NCBI RefSeq assembly: GCF_002377945.1 | Contig: NZ_DFQV01000027.1 | Coordinates: forward strand, 1-64,000 | DNA from: Psychrobacter sp. UBA3480 | Lineage (GTDB): Bacteria; Pseudomonadota; Gammaproteobacteria; Pseudomonadales; Moraxellaceae | Direction: 5' to 3' | Length of the DNA stretch: 64,000 bases | Part shown: piece after piece, positions 6,904 through 47,363 of the stretch | How the letters are laid out: every line of letters starts with the position of its first letter | Numbering within the stretch: position 1 is the stretch's first letter | Notes under the pieces: model-generated | What the model was told of the DNA's origin: nothing | The model's database searches: none | The model's input: the letters and a program-made list of their open reading frames with translations, nothing else | Made by a program: the position numbers and the translations under genes

Positions 6904-9657
6904 TTATTGTATGAAACTCTGCAAAACGGATTCTAAGTCTTTCTTGCTAATGGGTTTGGATAAAAACTCGTCCATACCAACTTGCATACAGGCCTCGCGA
7001 TCTTCTTCTGTATTATTCGCAGTTAGTGCCACAATTGGTATTTTATCACCTTGCGAGCGAATCACTTGTGTGGCTTGTAAGCCATCCATAACGGGCATTC
7101 GGCAGTCCATCAAAATCAAAGAAATTTCTTCACGTTGGCTTTTGAGTTTCTCGAGTGCTTGCTGTCCATCTTCTGCGACAATACTACGATAACCAAGCTT
7201 ACTTAACATCTTACAGGCTATCTTTTGGTTAGTAGGACTGTCTTCTACGACCAAAATCAGTGGAGACAAGGTTTCTTTCTTAGGTGTATCTTCTACAAAA
7301 GATAGACTGCTGTCATATTGATGTTTGACCAATATGTCTAGTGTTTTCCTTGCAAACAAGGTTAAGCGTAGCAGTTCAGACAGTAATAAACTTGCGTCCA
7401 AGGGTTTGGTCAAAAACCCATCATATTGGCCTAGTAAAGTAGAAGGTATATGCCTTTCAAGTTTCATGCTAAGTAATATCTTTGGTAGTGAAGGCGTAGT
7501 GACTAGGTCGTTTAACACTTCTAATTGCTCGCTATACTTGTTGCTCGCATGAGCTGATAAGGTGATGGATTCGCTGTATTCATAATCTAATAACAAGACA
7601 GGAATGACAGTTTGCTCATCTTGTTTTAATTTATTTTTTAGCTGCTGTACAGTGGCTCTATCTAAAGTGCTGTAGATAGTCACGGATATCGTTAAGTACT
7701 CGCACAAACGTTGTAAATGTTCAGCAACTAGAGGCTGATTGATGACAGCGATAAGGTGAATGTGTGGCAGCTGCGAACAACGATGATATACCGATTGATA
7801 AGTGGTATGAGGATAAGGAAGGTAGAGGCTAAATATCGTCTCTTTATCCACCGTATTACTTAGTTCGATAAAACCGCCGAGTAACTGAGCAAAGCTATTG
7901 GCATCACTCAAGCCAATATTACTGTCTTCAACTAAGTTATGATTGCTTTGATTCAAGATATTGACTAATTGATTTTTTCTCTCAGGAGTAATAGTTACTC
8001 CAGTGTCTTTTACGCTAAATCGAATCCAATAAGATGTCTGCGCAGGTATTGTCGTGTCATTGTTAGGAGTTAAAGGCTGATTACTTATTCGCGTTACTTT
8101 ATCTTCAGGTACACGATCAACAGTGAGCGCGACATAGCCTGATGTTGTAAAATCAATAGCGTTTTTCAACAGATTTAATAGGATATGGTGCAGACGAATG
8201 TAATCAGTTTCGATGTAACGAGGACAGTCCGGCGCAAAGAAATAAATCAATTCTAACCCTTGTTGTCTTATTTCTTGTGTGACTAAATTGCTAACTTCTT
8301 TGCTTACCTTATAAATATCAACCGTTTCGATACTTAGACGTGTTTTTCGGACTTCAACTTCCTCTGTTGCTAGCGTCTCATTGAGCACAGTCAACATGCT
8401 TTGACTGGTTGTAATTAATGTATTTAGAGTCTTTTTGCCTTGAGCCGTCAATGTTGAAGGGTCGATGGGTTCCAACGAATCAATTATTTTCTCTAGTGGT
8501 ATCCTTAACTTGCGACCTATAAATGCTTGGGCTTCGTTTGATTCATCAATTTGTAATTGCAGTTGTTGGTTGTGCAGCTGTAGTTGTTCAGATTGATGGA
8601 AAATCTCATCGACATTATTAAAAATCACAGTAAAACCGTGAACTTGCCCATGTTCGCCAAACCATGGTGTTACGTGTAGTTGGTAGGCTTGTTTGTTCTC
8701 CAAGCCATAAACTATCAGTGTGCGAGTAACGCGCAAACTTGAAATAGTTTTTAACAGTATTTGAGTGGCCTCATCTTTCCCTTCAACAAAATCAGTCAGC
8801 TCATAGCTTTGCTCTCTCTGTGTAGGAGGAGTAAACACTTGCTCAAAACGCTGATTATAGAAACTAATTTGACCATGTCGTATACTCATCAACATCGGTA
8901 AGGGTGCTTGATTAACCAAGCGTTCTAAACGATGAGTCAATGTTTTGATACGCCGATAGTCATTATGTAGCTGGTAGCTGACGCGACTTAGCGCATGACC
9001 TAATAACATGAACTCGGTAGTAGATTTCTTTTGTAAAAACGGTGGCGGCGTATAAGATTCTTTGGCGCGGCTACTCAAATTATCGGTATAAACCAGTAAT
9101 TGCTCCCAGTTAGTACGACGATTGAGCATATAGAGCAATGCCATGAAGAATAGTATGATGGCGACCATCAAAGGGAGCCAATAACGGTAAGATATCCAGT
9201 CAACAACAAAAGGCTCATGACGTAATACGATATAAATCTGATGTCCGCTTTTTAGATTAATGATCCCTGTTAGTTCATTACTATTGACAGTATAAGAGCT
9301 ATGGTCGCTGCTGCTAGAAGCTGATGTACCGATGGTAGGGAAAGCAACGGTAGAAAAAGCAGATTCATTAGGACGAGTATTATGATGAATATAGGTTTGC
9401 CCAGAAGGCATCATCAAAATCAGCTGATAACTCAGTTGATCAAAAGTAGGTTGTTCTAAGATTTTTTTTATTTCACTATCTACAGGTGCTGCATGCTCAA
9501 TAATACTGTGCTGTAGGGAATAAAAAGTATCTATGCTATGTTGCTCACTATGTTTTTTTATCCCATCAAACAGTGTGACATAGTACAGCAGTAACATAAC
9601 CGTGAGAGACAAGGTATAGAAAATCAATAAGCGCTGTAAGGACTGAAACTGTTGCAT
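6904..9657 (-). CDS. GacS/BarA-like hybrid sensor protein lacking the kinase histidine
   Basis: This 917-residue inner membrane signalling protein has a membrane segment near 10-30, an external sensing region, a second membrane segment near 163-185 and a PAS-like segment about 250-360. A histidine-kinase core (about 370-620), a degenerate receiver-like region and a canonical C-terminal receiver (about 783-913) follow. The receiver keeps the phosphoacceptor Asp851 in LMDCRMP. In the H-box the usual SHELRTPL reads GRKLRIPL, so the phosphorylated His is Arg382. The ATPase N box (NLLKNAIDFT) is good, but DTGVTI and NIGLS are degenerate G boxes. There is no HPt domain. It may act as a pseudokinase or a receiver fed by another kinase. 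It resembles BarA/GacS, but I give no symbol because the key residue is missing. Confidence 0.85.
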   Translation of the reverse strand: MQQFQSLQRLLIFYTLSLTVMLLLYYVTLFDGIKKHSEQHSIDTFYSLQHSIIEHAAPVDSEIKKILEQPTFDQLSYQLILMMPSGQTYIHHNTRPNESAFSTVAFPTIGTSASSSSDHSSYTVNSNELTGIINLKSGHQIYIVLRHEPFVVDWISYRYWLPLMVAIILFFMALLYMLNRRTNWEQLLVYTDNLSSRAKESYTPPPFLQKKSTTEFMLLGHALSRVSYQLHNDYRRIKTLTHRLERLVNQAPLPMLMSIRHGQISFYNQRFEQVFTPPTQREQSYELTDFVEGKDEATQILLKTISSLRVTRTLIVYGLENKQAYQLHVTPWFGEHGQVHGFTVIFNNVDEIFHQSEQLQLHNQQLQLQIDESNEAQAFIGRKLRIPLEKIIDSLEPIDPSTLTAQGKKTLNTLITTSQSMLTVLNETLATEEVEVRKTRLSIETVDIYKVSKEVSNLVTQEIRQQGLELIYFFAPDCPRYIETDYIRLHHILLNLLKNAIDFTTSGYVALTVDRVPEDKVTRISNQPLTPNNDTTIPAQTSYWIRFSVKDTGVTITPERKNQLVNILNQSNHNLVEDSNIGLSDANSFAQLLGGFIELSNTVDKETIFSLYLPYPHTTYQSVYHRCSQLPHIHLIAVINQPLVAEHLQRLCEYLTISVTIYSTLDRATVQQLKNKLKQDEQTVIPVLLLDYEYSESITLSAHASNKYSEQLEVLNDLVTTPSLPKILLSMKLERHIPSTLLGQYDGFLTKPLDASLLLSELLRLTLFARKTLDILVKHQYDSSLSFVEDTPKKETLSPLILVVEDSPTNQKIACKMLSKLGYRSIVAEDGQQALEKLKSQREEISLILMDCRMPVMDGLQATQVIRSQGDKIPIVALTANNTEEDREACMQVGMDEFLSKPISKKDLESVLQSFIQ

Positions 9658-9978
9658 GAAAGCGTGGCCCTATCTCGACACGAAAGAATATAGTGAAATA
9701 AAAATGAAGTTTCTACATATAGTAGGTGAATTATACGACAGTTGAATTGTCTAAAATTTTTAGTGTTACCTTCTATTTATAGCAGAATAACGGCTTACTG
9801 TTTACAGAGAGTGGTTATTAACACCAAATTGTTTTGTAAAAGATATAAATAGAACGTTCGATGTTCTTGATATTATAAAGGCAAATAATGTCATTGGTTA
9901 TCATGAAGTGGGGTCATTACAATCATGGCACTGCGCCGTAAACTCACCTATAATGAACAAATAAACCTTATATAATGC
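9658..9978. other. Intergenic region between divergent sensor gene and fmt
   Basis: About 320 bp of AT-rich DNA between divergent genes must carry both promoters. I see no RNA gene, repeat or clear operator in it. Confidence 0.5.
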
Positions 9979-11055
9979 ATGATTATGACTACAACTGCTC
10001 CTACCTTTGATACATCTAACTCGCTTACTGACCATGATAACCCAACTACTAACCGATTAAGGGTAGTATTTGCGGGGACGCCTGAATTCGCTGCTATTAG
10101 CCTTGAATCGTTAATTAATCAGCAAGAACCGCTGAATATAGAGATAGTCGCTGTTTACACCCAGCCTGATCGTAAGGCAGGTCGTGGTCAAAAACTGTCA
10201 GCTTCTGCGGTAAAAGAAGTTGCATTGGCAAATGATATCGCTGTAGAGCAGCCAGTCACTTTTAAAAAGTCTAGTGCAGAAGGGCTAGCTGCTAGGCAAA
10301 CTCTGCGCACCTACCAACCAGATGTGATGATTGTCGCCGCTTACGGATTGATTTTACCTATCGGTGTATTAGAGACGCCTACTCATGGTTGCTTAAATAT
10401 CCATGCCTCACTATTACCGCGTTGGCGCGGTGCTGCACCTATCCATCGTGCACTCTTGGCCGGAGATGATGAGACCGGCATTACCATTATGCAGATGGAC
10501 AAAGGTCTTGATACAGGTGACATGCTGTATAAAGTTAGCGAAAGTATTGCCTCTGATGATACCGCTGCTAGCCTACATGATAAGATGGCTGCATTTGGTG
10601 CGACAGCCATTAGTACGGTGCTAAAAGATTTAGCTACTTATCAAGCTCAAGCTATTGCTCAAGACGATAGTCAAGCCAACTACGCTGAAAAACTAGTCAA
10701 AACCGAAGGCGAAATTGATTGGGCGCAGCCTGCTGCCGCTATTGAACGCCAAATTCGTGGGCTGACACCATGGCCAGGTGCTTATGCTTTCCTAGCAGGG
10801 CAGCGCGTTAAAATACTGGCTAGCTTACCTGTAAATACATCGCAGCAAACCAATGAGCCTGCTGGAACGGTTATCAGTGTTGGACGAAAAGCGATTTTAG
10901 TCGCTTGTGGTAAAGAGAGTGACGCTGAATCATCAGCCACCACTTTAGCCATTACTCATTTGCAGTTTGCGGGTGGTAAGCCAATGACAGCTGAACAAGT
11001 TTGCCACGGCAACCAATTAAATGATGGCGATCAATTTACGTCAGAAACAAAATAA
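9979..11055 (+). CDS. fmt: Methionyl-tRNA formyltransferase
   Basis: Fmt formylates initiator Met-tRNA with 10-formyltetrahydrofolate. The N-terminal Rossmann domain starts at LRVVFAGTPEFA after a leader of about 27 residues. The catalytic and folate-binding region shows LNIHASLLPRWRGAAPI and TGITIMQMDKGLDTGDM. The C-terminal tRNA-binding barrel contains WAQPAAAIERQIRG and PWPGAYAFL. The 358-residue length fits given the extended N-terminus. No convincing ribosome site distinguishes the ATG at 9979 from the one at 9985. rsmB follows, as in many gammaproteobacteria. Confidence 0.97.
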   Translation: MIMTTTAPTFDTSNSLTDHDNPTTNRLRVVFAGTPEFAAISLESLINQQEPLNIEIVAVYTQPDRKAGRGQKLSASAVKEVALANDIAVEQPVTFKKSSAEGLAARQTLRTYQPDVMIVAAYGLILPIGVLETPTHGCLNIHASLLPRWRGAAPIHRALLAGDDETGITIMQMDKGLDTGDMLYKVSESIASDDTAASLHDKMAAFGATAISTVLKDLATYQAQAIAQDDSQANYAEKLVKTEGEIDWAQPAAAIERQIRGLTPWPGAYAFLAGQRVKILASLPVNTSQQTNEPAGTVISVGRKAILVACGKESDAESSATTLAITHLQFAGGKPMTAEQVCHGNQLNDGDQFTSETK

Positions 11056-39248: not shown

Positions 39249-40571
39249 TTAGCTATTAGCCTCGTCATACAGCTCACGTACGACTTCACCAATCGCTTTG
39301 ATACCATCAGTCAGTGTCTGCTCATCAGCGGCAATACTCATACGGATACATTCGTGCGCATGCTGATAATCGCTAACATCGACGCCAGGGAAGAAGTACT
39401 CACTTGGCACAATAAGCGTGCCTTTTTCTTTTAGGCGCTCGTATAGATCCAGCGTGCTAATCGGCAAGTCTTTAAACCATAACCATAAGAATATTGCGCC
39501 TTCAGGTTTATGAATGACCAAAGGATAGTCGCCCAAGGCTTCTTTTAATAGCTTCACCGCGAGTGTCGCCTGCTTTTGATAAAACGGCTTGATGTCGTTA
39601 TCAGATAATTGCTTGATACGATCGTTTTCTACCAGTGGCGTAGCAATCGCTGCACCAAAGCGTGTCGGCGCTAGATTAACCACGGCATTCATCGCACTAA
39701 CCGCTTCAATGACTTTGGCGTCGGCCACAATAATACCCGTACGCATACCAGGCAAACCAATCTTCGACAGGCTGAAGCAAAGAATCGTATTGTTATCCCA
39801 ATTCAGATGCGCGTCAGAATAGATGATATTGGGGAAAGGCATACCATAGGCATTATCAATGATGAGAGGTATGTCATAGCGTTTGGCAATCTCGGCCAAA
39901 TGCGCCATTTCATCATCGGTTAGCACATTGCCAGTCGGATTGGTCGGGCGTGAGCAACAAATAGCCCCGATACGACCTTCCTTTAGCGCTGGCAAGTTCT
40001 CTAATGCGTCAAAATCCACACGGTATTTAAAGAAGCCTTCCTCACCATCATGCGTCACTTCATCGATATGCGGTAATACGGCGGTGAAATGCTGACCTTC
40101 CACATGCACATCGCTATAGCCAATATATTCAGGGGTCAATGGCAGTAGAATGGACTTGTCGATAGACTCGCTATTCTCATCAGCGAACGCACCGCCAAAT
40201 AGGTTAAACAAATAGAAGAACGCATTCTGTGAGCCATTGGTCAGAGCGATATTTTCTGAGGTGAGATTCCAATCGTAATGACGGTTAAAGAAGCCAACCA
40301 ACGCATCGATAAAGGCGGCATCACCTTGCGGATTAGAGTAGTTCGCCATGCTAATAATCGCGCTACTATTGGGCACGCCTGCATCGTTATCAACACCTAG
40401 TGCCTTATACGTCTCCAAAAACAACTCATTGACGGCATCAATTTTGGCAGGGTTACCACCGCCCAGCATGTTGACTGGCTGATCGCTTTTTAGCGCGTCG
40501 CCCAGATCATCCATCAATTGTGAGATGCCAGTGGGCTGGGTAAATTTTTGACCGAACTTTGAGAATTTCAT
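39249..40571 (-). CDS. avtA: Valine-pyruvate aminotransferase AvtA
   Basis: PLP class I/II aminotransferase that makes alanine from pyruvate and valine (also linking to 2-oxoisovalerate). The N-terminus KFSKFGQKFTQPTGISQLMDDL and MLGGGNPAKI are specific to AvtA. SRPTNPTGNVLTDDE and the PLP lysine in FSLSKIGLPGMRTGII are clear. The C-terminal small domain contains PEGAIFLWLWFKDLP. The 440-residue length is near the family norm (about 417). Confidence 0.94.
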   Translation of the reverse strand: MKFSKFGQKFTQPTGISQLMDDLGDALKSDQPVNMLGGGNPAKIDAVNELFLETYKALGVDNDAGVPNSSAIISMANYSNPQGDAAFIDALVGFFNRHYDWNLTSENIALTNGSQNAFFYLFNLFGGAFADENSESIDKSILLPLTPEYIGYSDVHVEGQHFTAVLPHIDEVTHDGEEGFFKYRVDFDALENLPALKEGRIGAICCSRPTNPTGNVLTDDEMAHLAEIAKRYDIPLIIDNAYGMPFPNIIYSDAHLNWDNNTILCFSLSKIGLPGMRTGIIVADAKVIEAVSAMNAVVNLAPTRFGAAIATPLVENDRIKQLSDNDIKPFYQKQATLAVKLLKEALGDYPLVIHKPEGAIFLWLWFKDLPISTLDLYERLKEKGTLIVPSEYFFPGVDVSDYQHAHECIRMSIAADEQTLTDGIKAIGEVVRELYDEANS

Positions 40572-40706
40572 AAGGCTACCATGCTGTTTGGGAGGGTGTT
40601 ATAAGTTGGTATTTAACCGATAAAGTTGGGCTAGTATAGCAAATGAGGACTATAAAATAAGCAAAGTGCATGGTTGATATTGGTTTATATGCTTATACGT
40701 CTAATG

Positions 40707-40743
40707 AAGCAAAAAACGCCTGCTATATGAATAGAAGGCGTTT
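40707..40743 (-). terminator. Terminator of the NTPase-nuclease gene
   Basis: AAACGCCT (40714-40721) and AGGCGTTT (40736-40743) form an 8-bp stem. On the minus strand it is followed by a T run. It separates the accessory gene from avtA. Confidence 0.85.
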
Positions 40744-40804
40744 GGGTTTGAGGAGCTTAGTAAGGCTTTAGATGGATAAAAGAAGTACAACGTATTGCAA
40801 TTGT

Positions 40805-43800
40805 CTAATAATCAAAACCCTCGTCTTTTTTTCCTTTTTCAGCTTCTTTTAACTCTTGAGTGTTGATAGCTTCTAACCATTCAGTGCGTTTAGTTTCTAA
40901 ATACGGAACATAATTTTCTAAGCTATTCTTAATTAAATATTCTTTGAGTGAGTCGAGTACATCAAGTCGCTCTCGCATACCATTAGAGTAACTACCTGTA
41001 TAACTGTATATTTCATAGACATTATGGACTAACACTGCGTCTATAACAGATTTAGGGTTATTAGTATTATTAATAAAATAAACTATTAGATTGCTCCAAT
41101 GAAATTTCCTAACTCCTATTTGGTCTTCAATCCTTAATAAGTTCGCGTATTTAATCCAAAAATCTATCCTTACTTGCTCATCTTCATTTATCCAGTTAAT
41201 TACTGTGCTTTCTTCAGCATAAAAAAGCAAATCTGATCTATCCCACGATATAACATTAAATATTAGATATCCATTCTCTACAAACCTTTTGATAAACTGC
41301 TTAGTATCAGTTTTTAATAGAGCTTTTAAAGCTACAAAGGTTTGGGTTTCGTGATTTAATGATAAATATTTTTCTGAGTTAAATAGCTCAATAAATACGT
41401 CAAAAGCTTTTTCGATACTCTTATTGTTAGAGAGTAAAAGCTTAAGCATACCCTCTAGATCAAAGGTTTTATGACTACTATAAATTGAAGGCACACGTTT
41501 TAAAAAGGGTGAAATATATTTATCTGGTAGGCTTTTTATGTAGGTTGATTCAAGTTGAAAGGTTTGATCAATAGCAATTTCATAACCATTCTGGATCAAA
41601 GAATCAAAAACTTTTTCGAATTGCTCTGATGATATTTCTCTACGTCCTTTTTTCACAGAAATCCAAGCATAGTCGTAAAAATCAATATCTAATTTTAAGT
41701 CTAACAATTCACACAGAAAGTCAAAGTCTTCATCTGTTTGACTTAACTCAAAAGTTAACCAAGGTACGACTTGCTTAAATTCATCTGATTTCACTAGCTC
41801 TAAGATAGTTGATTTATAGTCACTAAAGGAGTTGTTTTTCAATTCCTTTAACAAGCCTAGTAATAAGTAAGGACACCTATTTATTGATAAGTCCGCAAGT
41901 CCCTGTAAAACATTAATTAAATTGCTATGTTCTATCAATTTTGGATAGATTACTGTGCCGGTGTATTCAAGACTTGGGTTGTCGCTACTCAGTAATAGTG
42001 CAAGATAAGAGTGCAAGTCATTGTTGTTCACTAATTCGTTAGAAATATATTGAATAAAATTATTATAATTATTAAAGTTGGGAACTTTAAGGCTCAAGCG
42101 TTTATCAGCTTGTCTTTGATATCTTGCTAAATCAAAACCACCTATCAGTATATAATGGTGAATTAACTGTTTTAATTCACCTAACTTAGGTTGAAGCGTA
42201 ATAATTAAACTTTGCAAGTCTTGAAGAGTTTGAGGGTGTTTCTTTTGTAATTCTTCATAATCATATGCAATAAGCTCATTCAAGGCAATTGAGGCTTTAA
42301 TAAACGGTTTCCTACTATGGAAATCTAGTATATATCTATCCATAAACCCACCTTGATAACAACTTCGAATGAGTGGTTTTAGCTGACTGGCGAAAATCTC
42401 TCTAGCATCTGTATAATCTAGACTATCAAGTTGATTTAAAAGATTTAATAAGAAATCGGTCCAATTCCAAATTTCACCATTAGTCTTGGGGCGATAGCCA
42501 TATCCATCTCTTTTTTCACCATTATCTAAGTTTGAATATAAAACACCACCTGAATTAAAATCTATTGCTGATTTTAATATGTTTAAGAGTATCTCAAAGT
42601 CTTTATTATCGAATAGCTGTTGTAGTAGTGGTTTTTTCAAATCTAATGTAGCTAAGCTTTCAGATGTATAAAGACTAAACATTGAGGTTAGAGTGCTTTG
42701 AGTAGATGAGTCTTTTGGCTTATTTTTTGCTATAGCCAATAGTAAATTAAAAGACTGACTGAAGCTCTCATATTTATAAGATAGAAGTTTAATAAGATAT
42801 TCGATTTTAGAGATGTGAGGGTTTTTAGAAGTTAAAAAGAGATTATCTCGAGTATGACGTTCTTCTATTAACTCTAAGATAGCTCTAGGTTCAATATGGG
42901 ATAGTAGGCGCAAGTAATTAATTTCTTCTTCAGAGATAGATCCATCGAGAAGTTTTTTACCTATAACTCCTTCCTTAGTTAATATTTTTTGAGCAAATTT
43001 ACGTACTTCTTCATTATCATGTAAGTAACTTAAACGTTTAATCATCGAGCGTTGTAATCGATTTGGCATTTTAACAAATATGTCGTGTAGTTCATCATCA
43101 TCAATCCACTGTAAGGCTTGTTTAGAGAGATGGTTTGCTAAGACATGAGGTAGTATGGCTCTAAAATTACCACGTTGTTGAACAACATCTTTAGCCTTTA
43201 ATTGCTCAATGACTTGTTTTGCAGTTCTAGGTGATATTTCAGCGATATCAGACAATATTTGGAGTTCTGAGTTTGGCTCTGATAAATCCTTAATATTAAA
43301 TGAAAAAACCAATGAGAAAACTTGAGCAATCTTGTAGTTCTCTTCATTGATCTGGCCATTTTGATAAAACAAACGCTCAAATAATTGTTTATCATTTAAT
43401 ATAGCAATATTATCTACATTATTCACAGTCGACGCGATAGCAAGAGCTAGTCGATAATTGCCACCTGTTAACTGCGCAATATCATGTGGGATAGGGTTGT
43501 TGATTTCAGGGTAATGGCGTTCTATTACCTTTTGAACAAGAGTAGGACTATTTGGCTCAAGTTTAAAAACTGACGTTTTTTCGGGTAAGTCATCAGAAAT
43601 ATCGTATTCGATAGTCAGTAGAGAAATCTGACTATCGTCATTAGTGACAGATTTAGTTAATATTTCATGTTGGTCACGCCCACAGTTATCAACGATAACG
43701 AGAAATTTCTTATTTTTCTGTTTAAGATCTTCTATAAAGTGTAGTGGAAGAGGGGATGGTGATTCACCATAATCACAATACCAAACCTCTCTAACGTCTA

Positions 43801-44539
43801 GTGGATTCTTACCTATACGGTCGTCAAATAGTGCTTGAGCTAATCTAGTTTTACCGGCACCAGATAAGCCTACAAGCCGAACAGAGTTTTTAGGCTGATT
43901 CAACTCTTTGCGTATAGCGTTTATGCCGTTGATTACGCGACTTGCATCGTCTCTTTTCTGATTAGGTAGTATTACCTTAATATCGTTATCAGTAAAATAT
44001 AGAGAGTCTACATTGGCTTGGGTGCTAGACCAATCCTTAAATCTATCCCAACCTTGATAATCATCATTCGTAAAAAAGTGTCTGGCTAAGTCGTTATTTT
44101 CTATACAAACAAATTCTGATTCGAAGAATGAATGCTCATTCCAAATAATTTCAATATTCAATTCAGATGCGCGCTCTTCAATAGCTATAAGAGCTGTAGA
44201 TTTACCATCTTTAGCATTACCTTGTCCCCATAATTGATTCGTATAAATTATTAAGTGAGTTAAATTTGGATAATTTTCTTTAGAAGTATTTAAAGTTTTA
44301 ATCAATTCATCTTTTTTAGATGATAAAGGTACGTCGTAAAATTTGGACTGAAAGCCTATAACTTTGTTACCCAGTACAAGTGGTTGTTTTTCTATTCCTG
44401 ACTGATTTTTATAACCAAACCATCCTTCTTTAAGGTCATACTTTCGACAAAATAATAAATAACTAAACCATTCGAAAGTATCATGAGGATTAGCACTGAA
44501 TTTTGCTTTGAATACATTCCAATCTGGTTGAATTATCAT
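40805..44539 (-). CDS. PD-(D/E)xK nuclease-STAND NTPase, candidate anti-phage sensor
   Basis: The 1244-residue soluble protein has three parts. Residues 1-150 look like a PD-(D/E)xK/Mrr-type nuclease: Glu23 in FEWF, Glu50 in GIEKQP, and the QSK triad (64-66) in IGFQSKFYD, then a strand LTHLIIYTN. Residues about 195-480 form a P-loop NTPase of STAND/NACHT style with Walker A GLSGAGKT (224-231), Walker B KFLVIVDNCGRD (278-289) and a winged-helix-like region ending near LPHVLANHL. Residues about 500-1240 are helical repeats, a probable ligand-sensing arm. The gene is AT-rich compared with its neighbours and stands alone between terminators. AAGGTATAAA precedes the ATG. The layout resembles Avs-like defence proteins, but I cannot assign a named family. 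Confidence 0.85.
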   Translation of the reverse strand: MIIQPDWNVFKAKFSANPHDTFEWFSYLLFCRKYDLKEGWFGYKNQSGIEKQPLVLGNKVIGFQSKFYDVPLSSKKDELIKTLNTSKENYPNLTHLIIYTNQLWGQGNAKDGKSTALIAIEERASELNIEIIWNEHSFFESEFVCIENNDLARHFFTNDDYQGWDRFKDWSSTQANVDSLYFTDNDIKVILPNQKRDDASRVINGINAIRKELNQPKNSVRLVGLSGAGKTRLAQALFDDRIGKNPLDVREVWYCDYGESPSPLPLHFIEDLKQKNKKFLVIVDNCGRDQHEILTKSVTNDDSQISLLTIEYDISDDLPEKTSVFKLEPNSPTLVQKVIERHYPEINNPIPHDIAQLTGGNYRLALAIASTVNNVDNIAILNDKQLFERLFYQNGQINEENYKIAQVFSLVFSFNIKDLSEPNSELQILSDIAEISPRTAKQVIEQLKAKDVVQQRGNFRAILPHVLANHLSKQALQWIDDDELHDIFVKMPNRLQRSMIKRLSYLHDNEEVRKFAQKILTKEGVIGKKLLDGSISEEEINYLRLLSHIEPRAILELIEERHTRDNLFLTSKNPHISKIEYLIKLLSYKYESFSQSFNLLLAIAKNKPKDSSTQSTLTSMFSLYTSESLATLDLKKPLLQQLFDNKDFEILLNILKSAIDFNSGGVLYSNLDNGEKRDGYGYRPKTNGEIWNWTDFLLNLLNQLDSLDYTDAREIFASQLKPLIRSCYQGGFMDRYILDFHSRKPFIKASIALNELIAYDYEELQKKHPQTLQDLQSLIITLQPKLGELKQLIHHYILIGGFDLARYQRQADKRLSLKVPNFNNYNNFIQYISNELVNNNDLHSYLALLLSSDNPSLEYTGTVIYPKLIEHSNLINVLQGLADLSINRCPYLLLGLLKELKNNSFSDYKSTILELVKSDEFKQVVPWLTFELSQTDEDFDFLCELLDLKLDIDFYDYAWISVKKGRREISSEQFEKVFDSLIQNGYEIAIDQTFQLESTYIKSLPDKYISPFLKRVPSIYSSHKTFDLEGMLKLLLSNNKSIEKAFDVFIELFNSEKYLSLNHETQTFVALKALLKTDTKQFIKRFVENGYLIFNVISWDRSDLLFYAEESTVINWINEDEQVRIDFWIKYANLLRIEDQIGVRKFHWSNLIVYFINNTNNPKSVIDAVLVHNVYEIYSYTGSYSNGMRERLDVLDSLKEYLIKNSLENYVPYLETKRTEWLEAINTQELKEAEKGKKDEGFDY

Positions 44540-44596
44540 TTTATACCTTCAAGAAATTGAGTAATGGAATGTTAATAGATATTAGCAAGTACCTGA

Positions 44597-44632
44597 CGTT
44601 ACTGCTAGTTCTGATGGCAGTAGTTATTTTGA
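44597..44632. promoter_or_regulatory. Hairpin in the upstream region of the NTPase-nuclease gene
   Basis: TTACTGC and GGCAGTA (about 44599-44623) form a short inverted repeat in the 100-bp leader between the ABC permease terminator and the accessory gene. It could be an operator or an RNA hairpin. The evidence is weak. Confidence 0.3.
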
Positions 44633-44674
44633 TGAGCTCAGCCTACATTAGCAGATAATAGCGTATGAAAAAAA

Positions 44675-44696
44675 ACCCCTATTAAGGGGTTTTTTT
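44675..44696. terminator. Terminator after the ABC permease gene
   Basis: A perfect 6-bp ACCCCT / AGGGGT stem with an ATTA loop, flanked by A and T runs. It works for either strand. Confidence 0.88.
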
Positions 44697-44720
44697 GTAT
44701 AAAGCCAAAATCCAATACGC

Positions 44721-47363
44721 TTAAACCATCGCCCTTACCCGTGCCATAATCCCGCGCCCAATCACCAATCTCACATAAATAATGGCAATAGCAAACAGCA
44801 ATACGATTAATGCCGCACCGCCAATCGCCAAGCTTGTCCACGGCACACTAAATTGTAAATTAAACCACTGAGTGATAGCAGCCCATGCACCCACGCTGGC
44901 GATAACAACAGCAAATGTTGCCGCGCTAATACCAAGCACACCCAGCTCTAAAATATTGAGCATATACAAGTCACGCTTTTGCATACCGAGCAGTCTAAAT
45001 GACGCACTGTCCTTCATACGATCTTGCGAAGTAGACAGTAGCGAGCTGATCAGCACCATGACTCCAGTGAGTAGGGCAAGCAAGGTGAACACATAGACTA
45101 GGCGGCTCATTTGTACCACCAACTCTTGAATTTGCTTCGCAATAGCAGTGCCATCGATTGTAGTGACAGCAGGGAACTCGCGTACCAGTTTGCCTTGTAG
45201 TTCTGGAATGGCATCTTCTGACACGTGCGCAGTGGCAAATTGAATCTGTGGGGCAGCGGACAGCACCGACGGCTCAAATAAGAAGTAAAAATACGGACTT
45301 GGGCCACGCTCATAGCGCGTGCGAATACTGGTAATCTGCCCGACGATCTCGATACCTTGAATGTTAAAACGCACCTGATCGCCCATACCGACATTGAGCA
45401 TACTGGCGGCAGTGTCCAAGATAGATAAGGGTTTGACTTGCTCATTTGTCGCATCGATAGGGGTGTATAGCGCGTCGTCTGTGAGCGATTCAGTGATGTA
45501 TTCGGTGTCCATGACCGTGTCTGTATAGCTCAAATTAAAGACACGCGTGGGATCATCAAACCCATCAGCAGGCTCGATATCTTTTGCCGCCACATCATTG
45601 GCCGTCTCCACACGCGCACGAATGACGGGATAATAAGTGACAGGCGCCTCAATGATCGCATCAATATCGTCATGTTGATCGCTCTGCACGTCGAGCAAAA
45701 ACAAATTGGGCGCGTCTTCAGGATAGGCACTGATAAACTGCGCATTGATACTGTGATTGAGTGTGGTAATGAGCGTCAGCACCGCTACTGATAGTGATAA
45801 TGTGATAAAGAACAACGCTGATTGGTTGCCTTTACGCGCAAGGTTATGGATGGCGATACGCTGCATCCAACTGACCTTGGTATTGCTTGCTAACTTGTTA
45901 AGCAGCCAGAGCCACCCACGCGCCAATAACCAAAATATCGCCACAAAGCCAATCAAGCCGCCCAATAGCTGTGCGCCTAATGACAGTGAGCCAACTTCAT
46001 AAGCAAAGAAAGCATACAGTCCTGCCAGCACCAAGCCATACCATAGTAGCGGCACGCGCCGATACCAAGGCAAGCTTTGCGTCTGCGTACTCGCCCCTTG
46101 ATTGAGTAGGGTAGCGGGTTTGGTTGTGTTAAGCGCGCTTAGACCACGCTGTGCAATCAGTAACGTCAGCGCTAAAGCAATTACAATGGTCTTGATCGCA
46201 CTGATTGGATTGATGGCGAGACCAACGTCGGCAGGCAAAATAGCGACCAGATACGGCTGACCGATTTTAAGCAAACCCAGACTAAGGACAATTGCGGCGA
46301 CACAAGCAATGATAGTCGTGACAATAAGCAATTGATAGTAGCTGCGTTTGAGTGAGCCAAGCGGCTCGCCTAACGCCAAGCGAATGGCGTTATTGGACTG
46401 CTGCTTACTGACAAACGCACTAATGACGCCGTACATAGTGACCGCAGATAGTAGCAACACCGCGATGACTAGCAGTTTTAAAAACATCAGCACATTATCA
46501 GAGATGCGCGAGACAGAAGTGTCTGCGGACTCAGCGTCAGATAGCTCAATATCAGGATAATTGGTCAGGATATCTGTGAGCTTGTCACGCTGCGTGGTTA
46601 TCAGTTCTGGGTCGCCTGCCATCTCAATACGATAGTTTATTCGGCTGCGTTGTCCCAATAGATTGGTTGACTGTAGTGCATCTTGTTTCATCAACACACG
46701 CCCACCAAAACCAAAGGTAGTCAGCGGGCGATCAGGCTCTTTGGTCAGTACATCATTGATCGTGAACTGCGCATCGCCAATGGTGATACGGTCGCCGACA
46801 TCGGCCTGTAGACTACTGAGCACTTCTGGCGCGACGATCACACTGTCAGATGTTAGCTGATCCCACAGCGGCTGTCCTGAGGCAAGCTCCGCTGTGCCGT
46901 ATAAGGGATACGACGGCGAGACGGCTTTGACGCTGGCAAGCAAGGTTTGCTCATCATTGACCAGCATGGCGCTAAATTGATAGTCATACACGGTCTGTGT
47001 ATTAGGGATAGTTTCTACCTGTGACAATACTTCGCTTGGCCAGTCTTGCTTACTGTTTAGGATTAGATCCCCACCAACGAGCGCGCGCTGATTGTCATTG
47101 ATGTAGCTATCGACAGACTGCTGCACAGAGTCCAGAGTCAGGTAAGTTGCAAGCGACAAGGTCAATGTCAGCAAGAATAGCAGTGGATACACCCAGCGTT
47201 GCCACCAACTACGGCTGAGTGCTTGTGAGCCTAGTGTTTGAAAACCTAGGGTACGAGTAAATAGTTGACTAAGGATGCCGCTAGGATAACTGGACTCTTG
47301 ATGCATACTGGTAGCAGTCTTTTTTGTATCAGGCGATTTGTTGTCTGTGGGCTTACTATTCAT
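44721..47363 (-). CDS. FtsX-type ABC transporter permease (YbbP-like)
   Basis: The 880-residue inner membrane protein has about ten membrane segments and two FtsX-like permease units. The N-terminal helix is near 50-70. A periplasmic MacB-type domain (about 75-280) is followed by helices near 290-420, a second half with another periplasmic domain (about 540-720) and a last membrane group. It is the permease of the YbbA-YbbP type, thought to export or release lipophilic molecules. It is the third gene of a tesA-ybbA-ybbP unit, 19 bp after the ATPase gene. Confidence 0.9.
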   Translation of the reverse strand: MNSKPTDNKSPDTKKTATSMHQESSYPSGILSQLFTRTLGFQTLGSQALSRSWWQRWVYPLLFLLTLTLSLATYLTLDSVQQSVDSYINDNQRALVGGDLILNSKQDWPSEVLSQVETIPNTQTVYDYQFSAMLVNDEQTLLASVKAVSPSYPLYGTAELASGQPLWDQLTSDSVIVAPEVLSSLQADVGDRITIGDAQFTINDVLTKEPDRPLTTFGFGGRVLMKQDALQSTNLLGQRSRINYRIEMAGDPELITTQRDKLTDILTNYPDIELSDAESADTSVSRISDNVLMFLKLLVIAVLLLSAVTMYGVISAFVSKQQSNNAIRLALGEPLGSLKRSYYQLLIVTTIIACVAAIVLSLGLLKIGQPYLVAILPADVGLAINPISAIKTIVIALALTLLIAQRGLSALNTTKPATLLNQGASTQTQSLPWYRRVPLLWYGLVLAGLYAFFAYEVGSLSLGAQLLGGLIGFVAIFWLLARGWLWLLNKLASNTKVSWMQRIAIHNLARKGNQSALFFITLSLSVAVLTLITTLNHSINAQFISAYPEDAPNLFLLDVQSDQHDDIDAIIEAPVTYYPVIRARVETANDVAAKDIEPADGFDDPTRVFNLSYTDTVMDTEYITESLTDDALYTPIDATNEQVKPLSILDTAASMLNVGMGDQVRFNIQGIEIVGQITSIRTRYERGPSPYFYFLFEPSVLSAAPQIQFATAHVSEDAIPELQGKLVREFPAVTTIDGTAIAKQIQELVVQMSRLVYVFTLLALLTGVMVLISSLLSTSQDRMKDSASFRLLGMQKRDLYMLNILELGVLGISAATFAVVIASVGAWAAITQWFNLQFSVPWTSLAIGGAALIVLLFAIAIIYVRLVIGRGIMARVRAMV

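What the first reader, a model, noticed from the sequence alone, without database searches (positions are those of the whole stretch)
40805..44539. Single-gene STAND NTPase with an N-terminal PD-(D/E)xK nuclease: candidate anti-phage defence system
The sequence shows a Mrr/PD-(D/E)xK-like motif set (Glu23, Glu50, Gln64-x-Lys66), a STAND/NACHT-type P-loop (224-231, Walker B 278-289), and a helical C-terminal half with no known family. The gene is AT-rich, isolated by terminators on both sides and inserted between housekeeping genes. Nuclease plus STAND NTPase plus long repeat sensor is the plan of known Avs proteins, but I cannot place it in a named Avs clade. It may therefore be a novel sensor or an uncharacterised clade. 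Function as an abortive DNase triggered by a phage protein is inference.
Basis: partly seen in the sequence, partly recalled or inferred. Interest (0 to 1): 0.85.

Follow-up and report, generated by a model that had tools for sequence, protein, structure and literature searches.

The report
Chimeric bacterial immune receptor in defence hotspot
This Psychrobacter gene looks like a one-protein anti-virus alarm that joins the DNA-cutting end of one known bacterial immune receptor (Avs4) to the switch and sensor of another (PD-lambda-4), and it sits in a chromosome spot where related strains carry many different small gene cassettes, a good part of them defence genes.

Summary
In detail: one intact 1244-aa ORF (40805-44539, minus strand), AT-rich, with the stated nuclease and P-loop residues and a terminator hairpin on each side. 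Residues 1-160 are an Avs4-type nuclease (46% identity). Residues 160-1244 are the STAND NTPase and helical sensor of PD-lambda-4_A (PADLOC 5e-114; C-terminal profile match 100% over 729 columns, against 0.2% with Avs4's sensor). It is neither a true Avs4 (204 bits, cutoff 1500) nor a canonical PD-lambda-4: its nuclease differs and the partner PD-Lambda-4_B was not found in the genome. Relatives carry this body with other N-termini (canonical nuclease, alpha/beta-hydrolase), so PD-lambda-4 looks like a modular NLR/Avs-like receptor family. The site is a Psychrobacter hotspot: of 82 readable genomes 16 are empty and 66 hold 1.2-5.8 kb inserts, many with known defence genes; this gene is in 2. 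Against strain G144 the nuclease/NTPase half is nearly identical at silent sites but the sensor half is diverged, implying intragenic recombination. Phage defence and the trigger are untested.

The parts
40805..44539 (-). 1244-aa STAND-nuclease gene
   Evidence: ORF; PADLOC PD-Lambda-4_A 5.2e-114 (residues 160-974) and Avs4 3.2e-68 (residues 3-246)
44060..44539 (-). residues 1-160: Avs4-type PD-(D/E)xK nuclease (E23, E50, Q64-x-K66)
   Evidence: PDB 8dgf (Avs4) 5.1e-42; 46% identity to plasmid avs4 genes over residues 2-157; hhalign 100% to Avs4 nuclease; conservation
43100..44059 (-). residues 161-480: STAND NTPase with winged-helix end (P-loop 224-231, D284, R456, H465)
   Evidence: conservation; AlphaFold model mean pLDDT 85; fold matches Avs4, NRC1 NB-ARC, Apaf-1, NLRC4, STAND protein 6mfv
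40808..43099 (-). residues 481-1244: nearly all-helical solenoid sensor, PD-lambda-4_A type
   Evidence: model mean pLDDT 87 (residues 440-1244); generic HEAT/ARM-like matches only; hhalign 100% to canonical PD-lambda-4_A C-term, 729 columns
40714..40743 (-). terminator hairpin downstream of the gene (U-rich stretch to about 40708)
   Evidence: strand folding of 40700-40760 (-)
44669..44696 (-). terminator hairpin between the permease gene and this gene
40572..44720 (.). hotspot interval between permease and aminotransferase genes (4149 nt here; 107-225 nt in empty relatives)
44721..47363 (-). flanking conserved ABC-type permease (hotspot border)
39249..40571 (-). flanking conserved aminotransferase (hotspot border), found in 105 of 105 Psychrobacter genomes

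Best explanation
A single-protein, NLR/Avs-like anti-phage receptor of the PD-lambda-4_A STAND family that carries an Avs4-type nuclease as its effector. Proposed mechanism: in the resting cell the STAND NTPase (P-loop K230, Walker B D284, winged-helix H465) is held inactive by the alpha-solenoid C-terminus. A phage protein binds the solenoid, ATP-driven oligomerisation follows, the nuclease domains are brought together, and E50/Q64/K66 cut DNA without discrimination, stopping the phage together with the infected cell. Shown here: architecture, homology of both halves, conserved catalytic residues, different effectors on the same body in relatives, patchy distribution, and residence in a hotspot rich in defence genes. 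Inferred: defence activity, oligomerisation, DNA cleavage, and that the trigger is a phage protein (its identity is unknown; it need not be the portal protein, since the sensor is not Avs4's by sequence).
Against: No phage or biochemical data. The NTPase gives no Pfam match above its cutoff and only 7.4% hhalign probability to the Avs4 NTPase, so the STAND assignment rests on motifs, on the predicted fold and on PD-lambda-4 kinship. The best-matching E. coli locus has a second gene (B) that was not found in this genome, so PD-lambda-4's activity may not carry over. 7 of 17 sampled hotspot inserts gave no PADLOC match in their largest ORF, two of the 10 positives are protein kinases whose match may be generic, and one hotspot protein matches a D-lactate dehydrogenase.
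Confidence: 0.8

Rival explanations
1. A true Avs4 ortholog (portal-sensing) that has merely diverged in its C-terminal half.
For: Avs4 homology over residues 3-246 and the best structural match is Avs4 8dgf.
Against: NCBIfam Avs4 equivalog score 204.5 against a cutoff of 1500; C-term hhalign probability 0.2% to Avs4 but 100% over 729 columns to PD-lambda-4_A; 1244 aa against 1550-1610 aa for the 30 Avs4-length proteins used. Four other Psychrobacter genomes have open frames of 1574-1584 aa that match only residues 4-241 at 30-31% identity, as expected of genuine Avs4.
Confidence: 0.05
2. An incomplete PD-lambda-4 system that needs a PD-Lambda-4_B partner and is inactive or acts differently alone.
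For: The E. coli locus with the best match has A followed by B. B has no match in this genome; in the family search 2 of 299 genomes gave marginal hits (E 5e-4 and 9e-4), each with a stop inside.
Against: B was detected by phmmer at only 1 of 94 loci of the body family (flanks of up to 6 kb, some cut short, and a diverged B could be missed), and three neighbours of the canonical gene in G017 gave no PADLOC match, so many relatives also seem to lack it. The gene is intact, under purifying selection and terminator-bounded as a single cassette.
Confidence: 0.12
3. A Type IV restriction-like enzyme (Mrr/McrBC logic): the nuclease acts on modified or foreign DNA and the NTPase drives it, with no protein trigger.
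For: The nuclease is of the PD-(D/E)xK kind, and invading DNA could be the cue.
Against: The NTPase matches NLR/STAND folds with a winged-helix end; the C-terminus is a helical solenoid; the same body occurs with an alpha/beta-hydrolase in place of a nuclease, which makes DNA reading an unlikely common function.
Confidence: 0.08
4. A housekeeping or regulatory STAND protein unrelated to phage.
For: Some STAND proteins are regulators (MalT, recalled).
Against: Full-length copies in 4 of 105 Psychrobacter genomes, in 2 of 82 readable sites, AT-rich cassette in a hotspot rich in defence genes, catalytic residues of a nuclease conserved.
Confidence: 0.04

Closest known systems
PD-lambda-4 (PD-Lambda-4_A of E. 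coli; Vassallo et al. 2022, PMC9519451)
   Same: STAND NTPase and the whole C-terminal sensor: PADLOC 380 bits, hhalign 100% over 729 C-terminal columns.
   Different: N-terminal nuclease is of another lineage (hhalign 3.3% to the canonical one); no PD-Lambda-4_B found; body about 29-46% identical to canonical-type members, by stretch.
Avs4 (AVAST type 4; PDB 8dgf)
   Same: Nuclease domain, residues 1-160, about 46% identical with E23/E50/Q64/K66 kept; same effector-STAND-sensor plan.
   Different: Different NTPase at sequence level and unrelated sensor profile (7.4% and 0.2%); shorter; far below the Avs4 equivalog cutoff.
bNACHT25/32 nuclease-STAND proteins (PMC12169576)
   Same: Single-protein PD-(D/E)xK nuclease + STAND module + helical C-terminus, working by DNA degradation (passages).
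   Different: Their NACHT module and NCH1 C-terminus are named families; here Pfam NACHT gives no match at E 1 or better.
Avs1-3 and Avs5
   Same: Tripartite effector-STAND-sensor receptors.
   Different: Avs2 C-term hhalign 0.2%; Avs5 carries a Sir2 NADase (PMC12931631, passages). Avs1, Avs3 and Avs5 sensors were not compared.

Membership tests
Avs4 | Avs4-type N-terminal nuclease domain | tested here: met
   PADLOC Avs4 3.2e-68 residues 3-246; hhalign 100%; catalytic residues
Avs4 | Whole-protein Avs4 equivalog score (NF041815 cutoff 1500 bits) | tested here: not met
   204.5 bits
Avs4 | Avs4 C-terminal sensor | tested here: not met
   Sequence-profile test only: hhalign 0.2% against 30 Avs4-length proteins. 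A remote fold relation is not excluded.
PD-lambda-4 | PD-Lambda-4_A STAND and sensor body | tested here: met
   PADLOC PDLC03991 5.2e-114, residues 160-974; hhalign C-term 100%, 729 columns
PD-lambda-4 | Canonical PD-Lambda-4_A N-terminal domain | tested here: not met
   hhalign 3.3%; PADLOC best stretch starts at residue 160, profile position 178
PD-lambda-4 | Partner gene PD-Lambda-4_B (PDLC03992) | tested here: not met
   No match at E 0.001 in G000, 99.9% complete in 33 contigs. Detected at 1 of 94 loci of the body family.
STAND NTPases / NLR-like receptors | P-loop NTPase of NB-ARC/NACHT type followed by winged helix | tested here: met
STAND NTPases / NLR-like receptors | ATP-dependent oligomerisation upon ligand | not testable with these tools
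   Needs protein work
PD-(D/E)xK nucleases | Acidic residues plus (E/Q)-x-K on the core strand | tested here: met
   E50 and Q64-x-K66 (Q in 161, E in 1, of 162); strand 59-66 carries Q64-K66. The model is poor around residues 41-50 (mean pLDDT 52).
Anti-phage defence system | Reduces phage plating | not testable with these tools
   Needs a phage assay

The most novel reading that the evidence does not exclude
PD-lambda-4 is not one two-gene E. coli system but a large, multi-phylum family of Avs/NLR-like pattern-recognition receptors, mostly single-gene. Its shared STAND and solenoid sensor reads a phage feature different from the known Avs triggers, and it is plugged into at least four exchangeable effectors (canonical PD-(D/E)xK nuclease, Avs4-type nuclease, alpha/beta-hydrolase, putative membrane domain). 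Effector and sensor halves recombine independently within species.
Probability: 0.5. Interest if true: 0.65.

Novelty: new variant of a known kind. Interest (0 to 1): 0.5.

Why it matters
It turns an 'unplaceable' gene into a testable statement: the Avs4 killing module works on a receptor body for which I found no described trigger. If one sensor body serves nuclease, hydrolase and membrane effectors, finding its trigger once would explain a family spread over several phyla, and swapping the N-termini would test modularity directly. The Psychrobacter hotspot (permease/aminotransferase) is also a place to mine for further small defence systems: 47 distinct families of the largest ORF in 66 occupied sites.

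Tried and rejected

Limits. Hotspot: 23 of 105 genomes could not be scored (contig ends or other gene order). A recurrent 315-317-aa ORF beginning MKAVLLDE, ORFs under 130 aa and near-copies were left out when insert proteins were chosen (94 of 127 candidates went, the window's own gene being among those removed), but that ORF's length stays in the insert sizes. Searches show only the first 25 of 293 and 79 families. Two of the 10 PADLOC-positive inserts are protein kinases of one family; without them 8 of 17; the three-genome 579-aa family was drawn twice among the negatives. The 10 control ORFs were picked by hand along the window. Protein searches list the best 120 of 163, 125 and 1314 hits. 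The hydrolase label of L185, L191, L194 and L211 rests on one cluster and my reading of two sequences, that of L061 on Pfam above cutoff, of L060 on Pfam just below cutoff, and of the Lelliottia protein on its annotation.

Full report
WHAT IS THERE. The gene is real: a 1244-aa ORF on the minus strand at 40805-44539 with an ATG start, GC about 0.32 between two genes of 0.46-0.52, and a strong hairpin with a U-rich tail or arm on either side. In 162 proteins with this N-terminus (the window's included, a few loci duplicating database proteins), E23, E50 and K66 never vary and Q64 varies once. In the 147 aligned bodies counted, the P-loop G224, G227, G229, K230 and T231 never vary.

TWO KNOWN HALVES. 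PADLOC gives PD-Lambda-4_A at 5e-114 (best stretch residues 160-974) and Avs4 at 3e-68 on residues 3-246. NCBIfam gives Avs4 at 204 bits, far under its cutoff of 1500, on residues 6-246 only. The Avs4 structure 8dgf matches residues 3-173. On plasmids (40 of 65 records listed), tblastn hits to avs4-type genes cover residues 1 or 2 to 157 (one runs to 241), while hits H2-H27, mostly hypothetical proteins, start at residues 153-167, and one Moraxella gene matches throughout: the joint is the domain border. Profile-profile comparison makes it sharp: nuclease against Avs4 nuclease 100%, against canonical PD-lambda-4_A nuclease 3.3%; NTPase against Avs4 7.4%; sensor against canonical PD-lambda-4_A sensor 100% over 729 columns, against Avs4 or Avs2 sensors 0.2%.

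FAMILY. The full-length form (36-92% identity) occurs in Psychrobacter, Acinetobacter and a Moraxella plasmid. PD-Lambda-4_A matches turn up in 11 of 299 genomes of the bacterial family. Of 194 proteins classified by HMM, 117 have Avs4-type N-terminus plus this body, 27 canonical N-terminus plus body, 45 Avs4-type N-terminus without this body, 4 the body with neither N-terminus, and 1 neither (these came from searches seeded with this protein, so the proportions are biased). Other bodies with the Avs4-type nuclease include NACHT proteins of 806-1187 aa and an Avs2-type body. Two Psychrobacter proteins (L060, L061), four further bacteria (L185, L191, L194, L211) and a Lelliottia plasmid carry an alpha/beta-hydrolase-like domain in front of the body. 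One Campylobacteraceae protein (L183) has a 131-aa N-terminus that looks membrane-spanning by eye. Across 94 loci: 81 canonical, 4 Avs4-type (by the match ranges these are L168-L171, all Moraxellaceae), 4 hydrolase-like, 1 membrane-like, 4 short or truncated. Titles include Proteobacteria, Paenibacillus and other Firmicutes, Bacteroidetes, Chloroflexi, Acidobacteria, Planctomycetes and a cyanobacterium (several are metagenome bins). The E. coli gene with the best PADLOC match (2518 bits) is followed by PD-Lambda-4_B (653 bits), with an integrase gene about 4 kb away; DNA 60-80% identical to part of an Enterobacter relative is in 175 of 5426 complete E. coli genomes. B was not found in this genome and was detected at 1 of 94 body loci. 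A published table already lists PD-lambda-4 as holding a P-loop NTPase (PMC10952713, passages).

HOTSPOT. In 105 Psychrobacter genomes the aminotransferase is universal. The permease-aminotransferase interval could be read in 82: 16 empty (107-225 nt) and 66 occupied by 1.2-5.8 kb, mean GC 0.33, among them the window and G144 with this gene. The neighbouring ATPase-permease junction, as control, is within 500 nt in 68 of 73. The largest ORFs of the 66 inserts fall into 47 families. Of 94 non-redundant insert proteins, Pfam finds GmrSD_N in 5, reverse transcriptase in 5, CBASS-like Sa_NUDIX in 2, DNA methylase in 2, HEPN in 2, NACHT in 2, and one each of ThsA_Macro, ScaI, RloB and others, but also one D-lactate dehydrogenase. 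PADLOC finds DRT, AbiLi and others. In a random 17 of 64 inserts without this gene, the largest ORF matched PADLOC at 1e-5 or better in 10; 10 ordinary window ORFs gave 0. This is a defence hotspot, though not every occupant is shown to be a defence gene. In G130 the gene also lies 85 nt behind the permease homolog, with other genes beyond; in G226 it is elsewhere.

EVOLUTION. Full-length copies are in 4 of 105 Psychrobacter genomes; a fifth genome has the gene in two pieces. Amino-acid identity falls along the protein: 98.8, 95.3, 91.5 and 85.6% against G144, and 85, 80, 65 and 59% against G130, for residues 1-160, 161-480, 481-820 and 821-1244. Against G144, silent divergence is 0-0.09 per 80-residue block over residues 1-640 (19 changes in 400 sites) but 0.12-0.51 beyond (79.5 changes in 355 sites), while the flanking genes show 0.30 and 0.35. 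So the effector/NTPase half was probably shared recently and the sensor half is older: intragenic recombination. dN/dS is 0.06-0.26 except in the NTPase segment against G144 (0.58), where silent changes are too few to read.

HOW IT PROBABLY WORKS. By Avs and bNACHT precedent (PMC12931631, PMC12169576, PMC12724215: passages only) the C-terminus senses a phage product, the NTPase oligomerises on ATP, and the N-terminal nuclease degrades DNA, killing or arresting the infected cell. Architecture and homology are shown; sensing, oligomerisation, cleavage and protection are inferred. The trigger cannot be carried over from Avs4, because the sensor is not Avs4's by sequence.

VERDICT. A real and intact gene, best called a chimeric PD-lambda-4-type STAND receptor with an Avs4-type nuclease: a new variant of a known kind. 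The wider point, that PD-lambda-4_A is a modular Avs/NLR-like receptor family, I did not find in print within the searches named under Tried and rejected, which are limited.

Noticed in passing
G080 (L057 about 6962-9196 and L058 about 8623-10263): A copy of this gene is in two pieces on one contig about 80 kb apart (residues 1-659 and 680-1244), with ordinary-looking genes beside each piece; possibly a rearrangement through the gene.
   Followed up: partly
window 40805-44539 versus G144 (L054 6875-10609): Abrupt change in silent divergence near residue 640: N-terminal half nearly identical, sensor half diverged, flanking genes diverged; a mosaic gene.
   Followed up: yes
L060 8100-11999 (-), L061 7193-11089 (+): Two Psychrobacter genomes carry the PD-lambda-4-like body with an alpha/beta-hydrolase (PGAP1-like) N-terminus at another chromosomal place (PADLOC on L060 only).
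   Followed up: partly
P0150, P0149, P0152, P0157: 1422-1426-aa proteins with an Avs4-type nuclease; P0150, the one scanned, carries an Avs2 body: another effector exchange.
   Followed up: no
P0142: 806-aa protein with Avs4-type nuclease, NACHT part and an M78 (IrrE-like) peptidase end.
   Followed up: no
L183: Campylobacteraceae protein with the PD-lambda-4-like body and a 131-aa N-terminus that looks membrane-spanning.
   Followed up: no
L162 3888-14560 (Moraxella osloensis plasmid pSKB0120-2): A 37%-identical homolog lies in a run of same-strand large unannotated genes (709, 1248 and 1586 aa) that might form a plasmid defence operon.
   Followed up: no
L067, L068, L109 (hotspot inserts): A 579-aa protein (MKQPTSYLPLKK...) followed by a 65-aa ORF recurs in three genomes at the hotspot; the two 579-aa copies shown singly against PADLOC gave no match: candidate undescribed system.
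   Followed up: no
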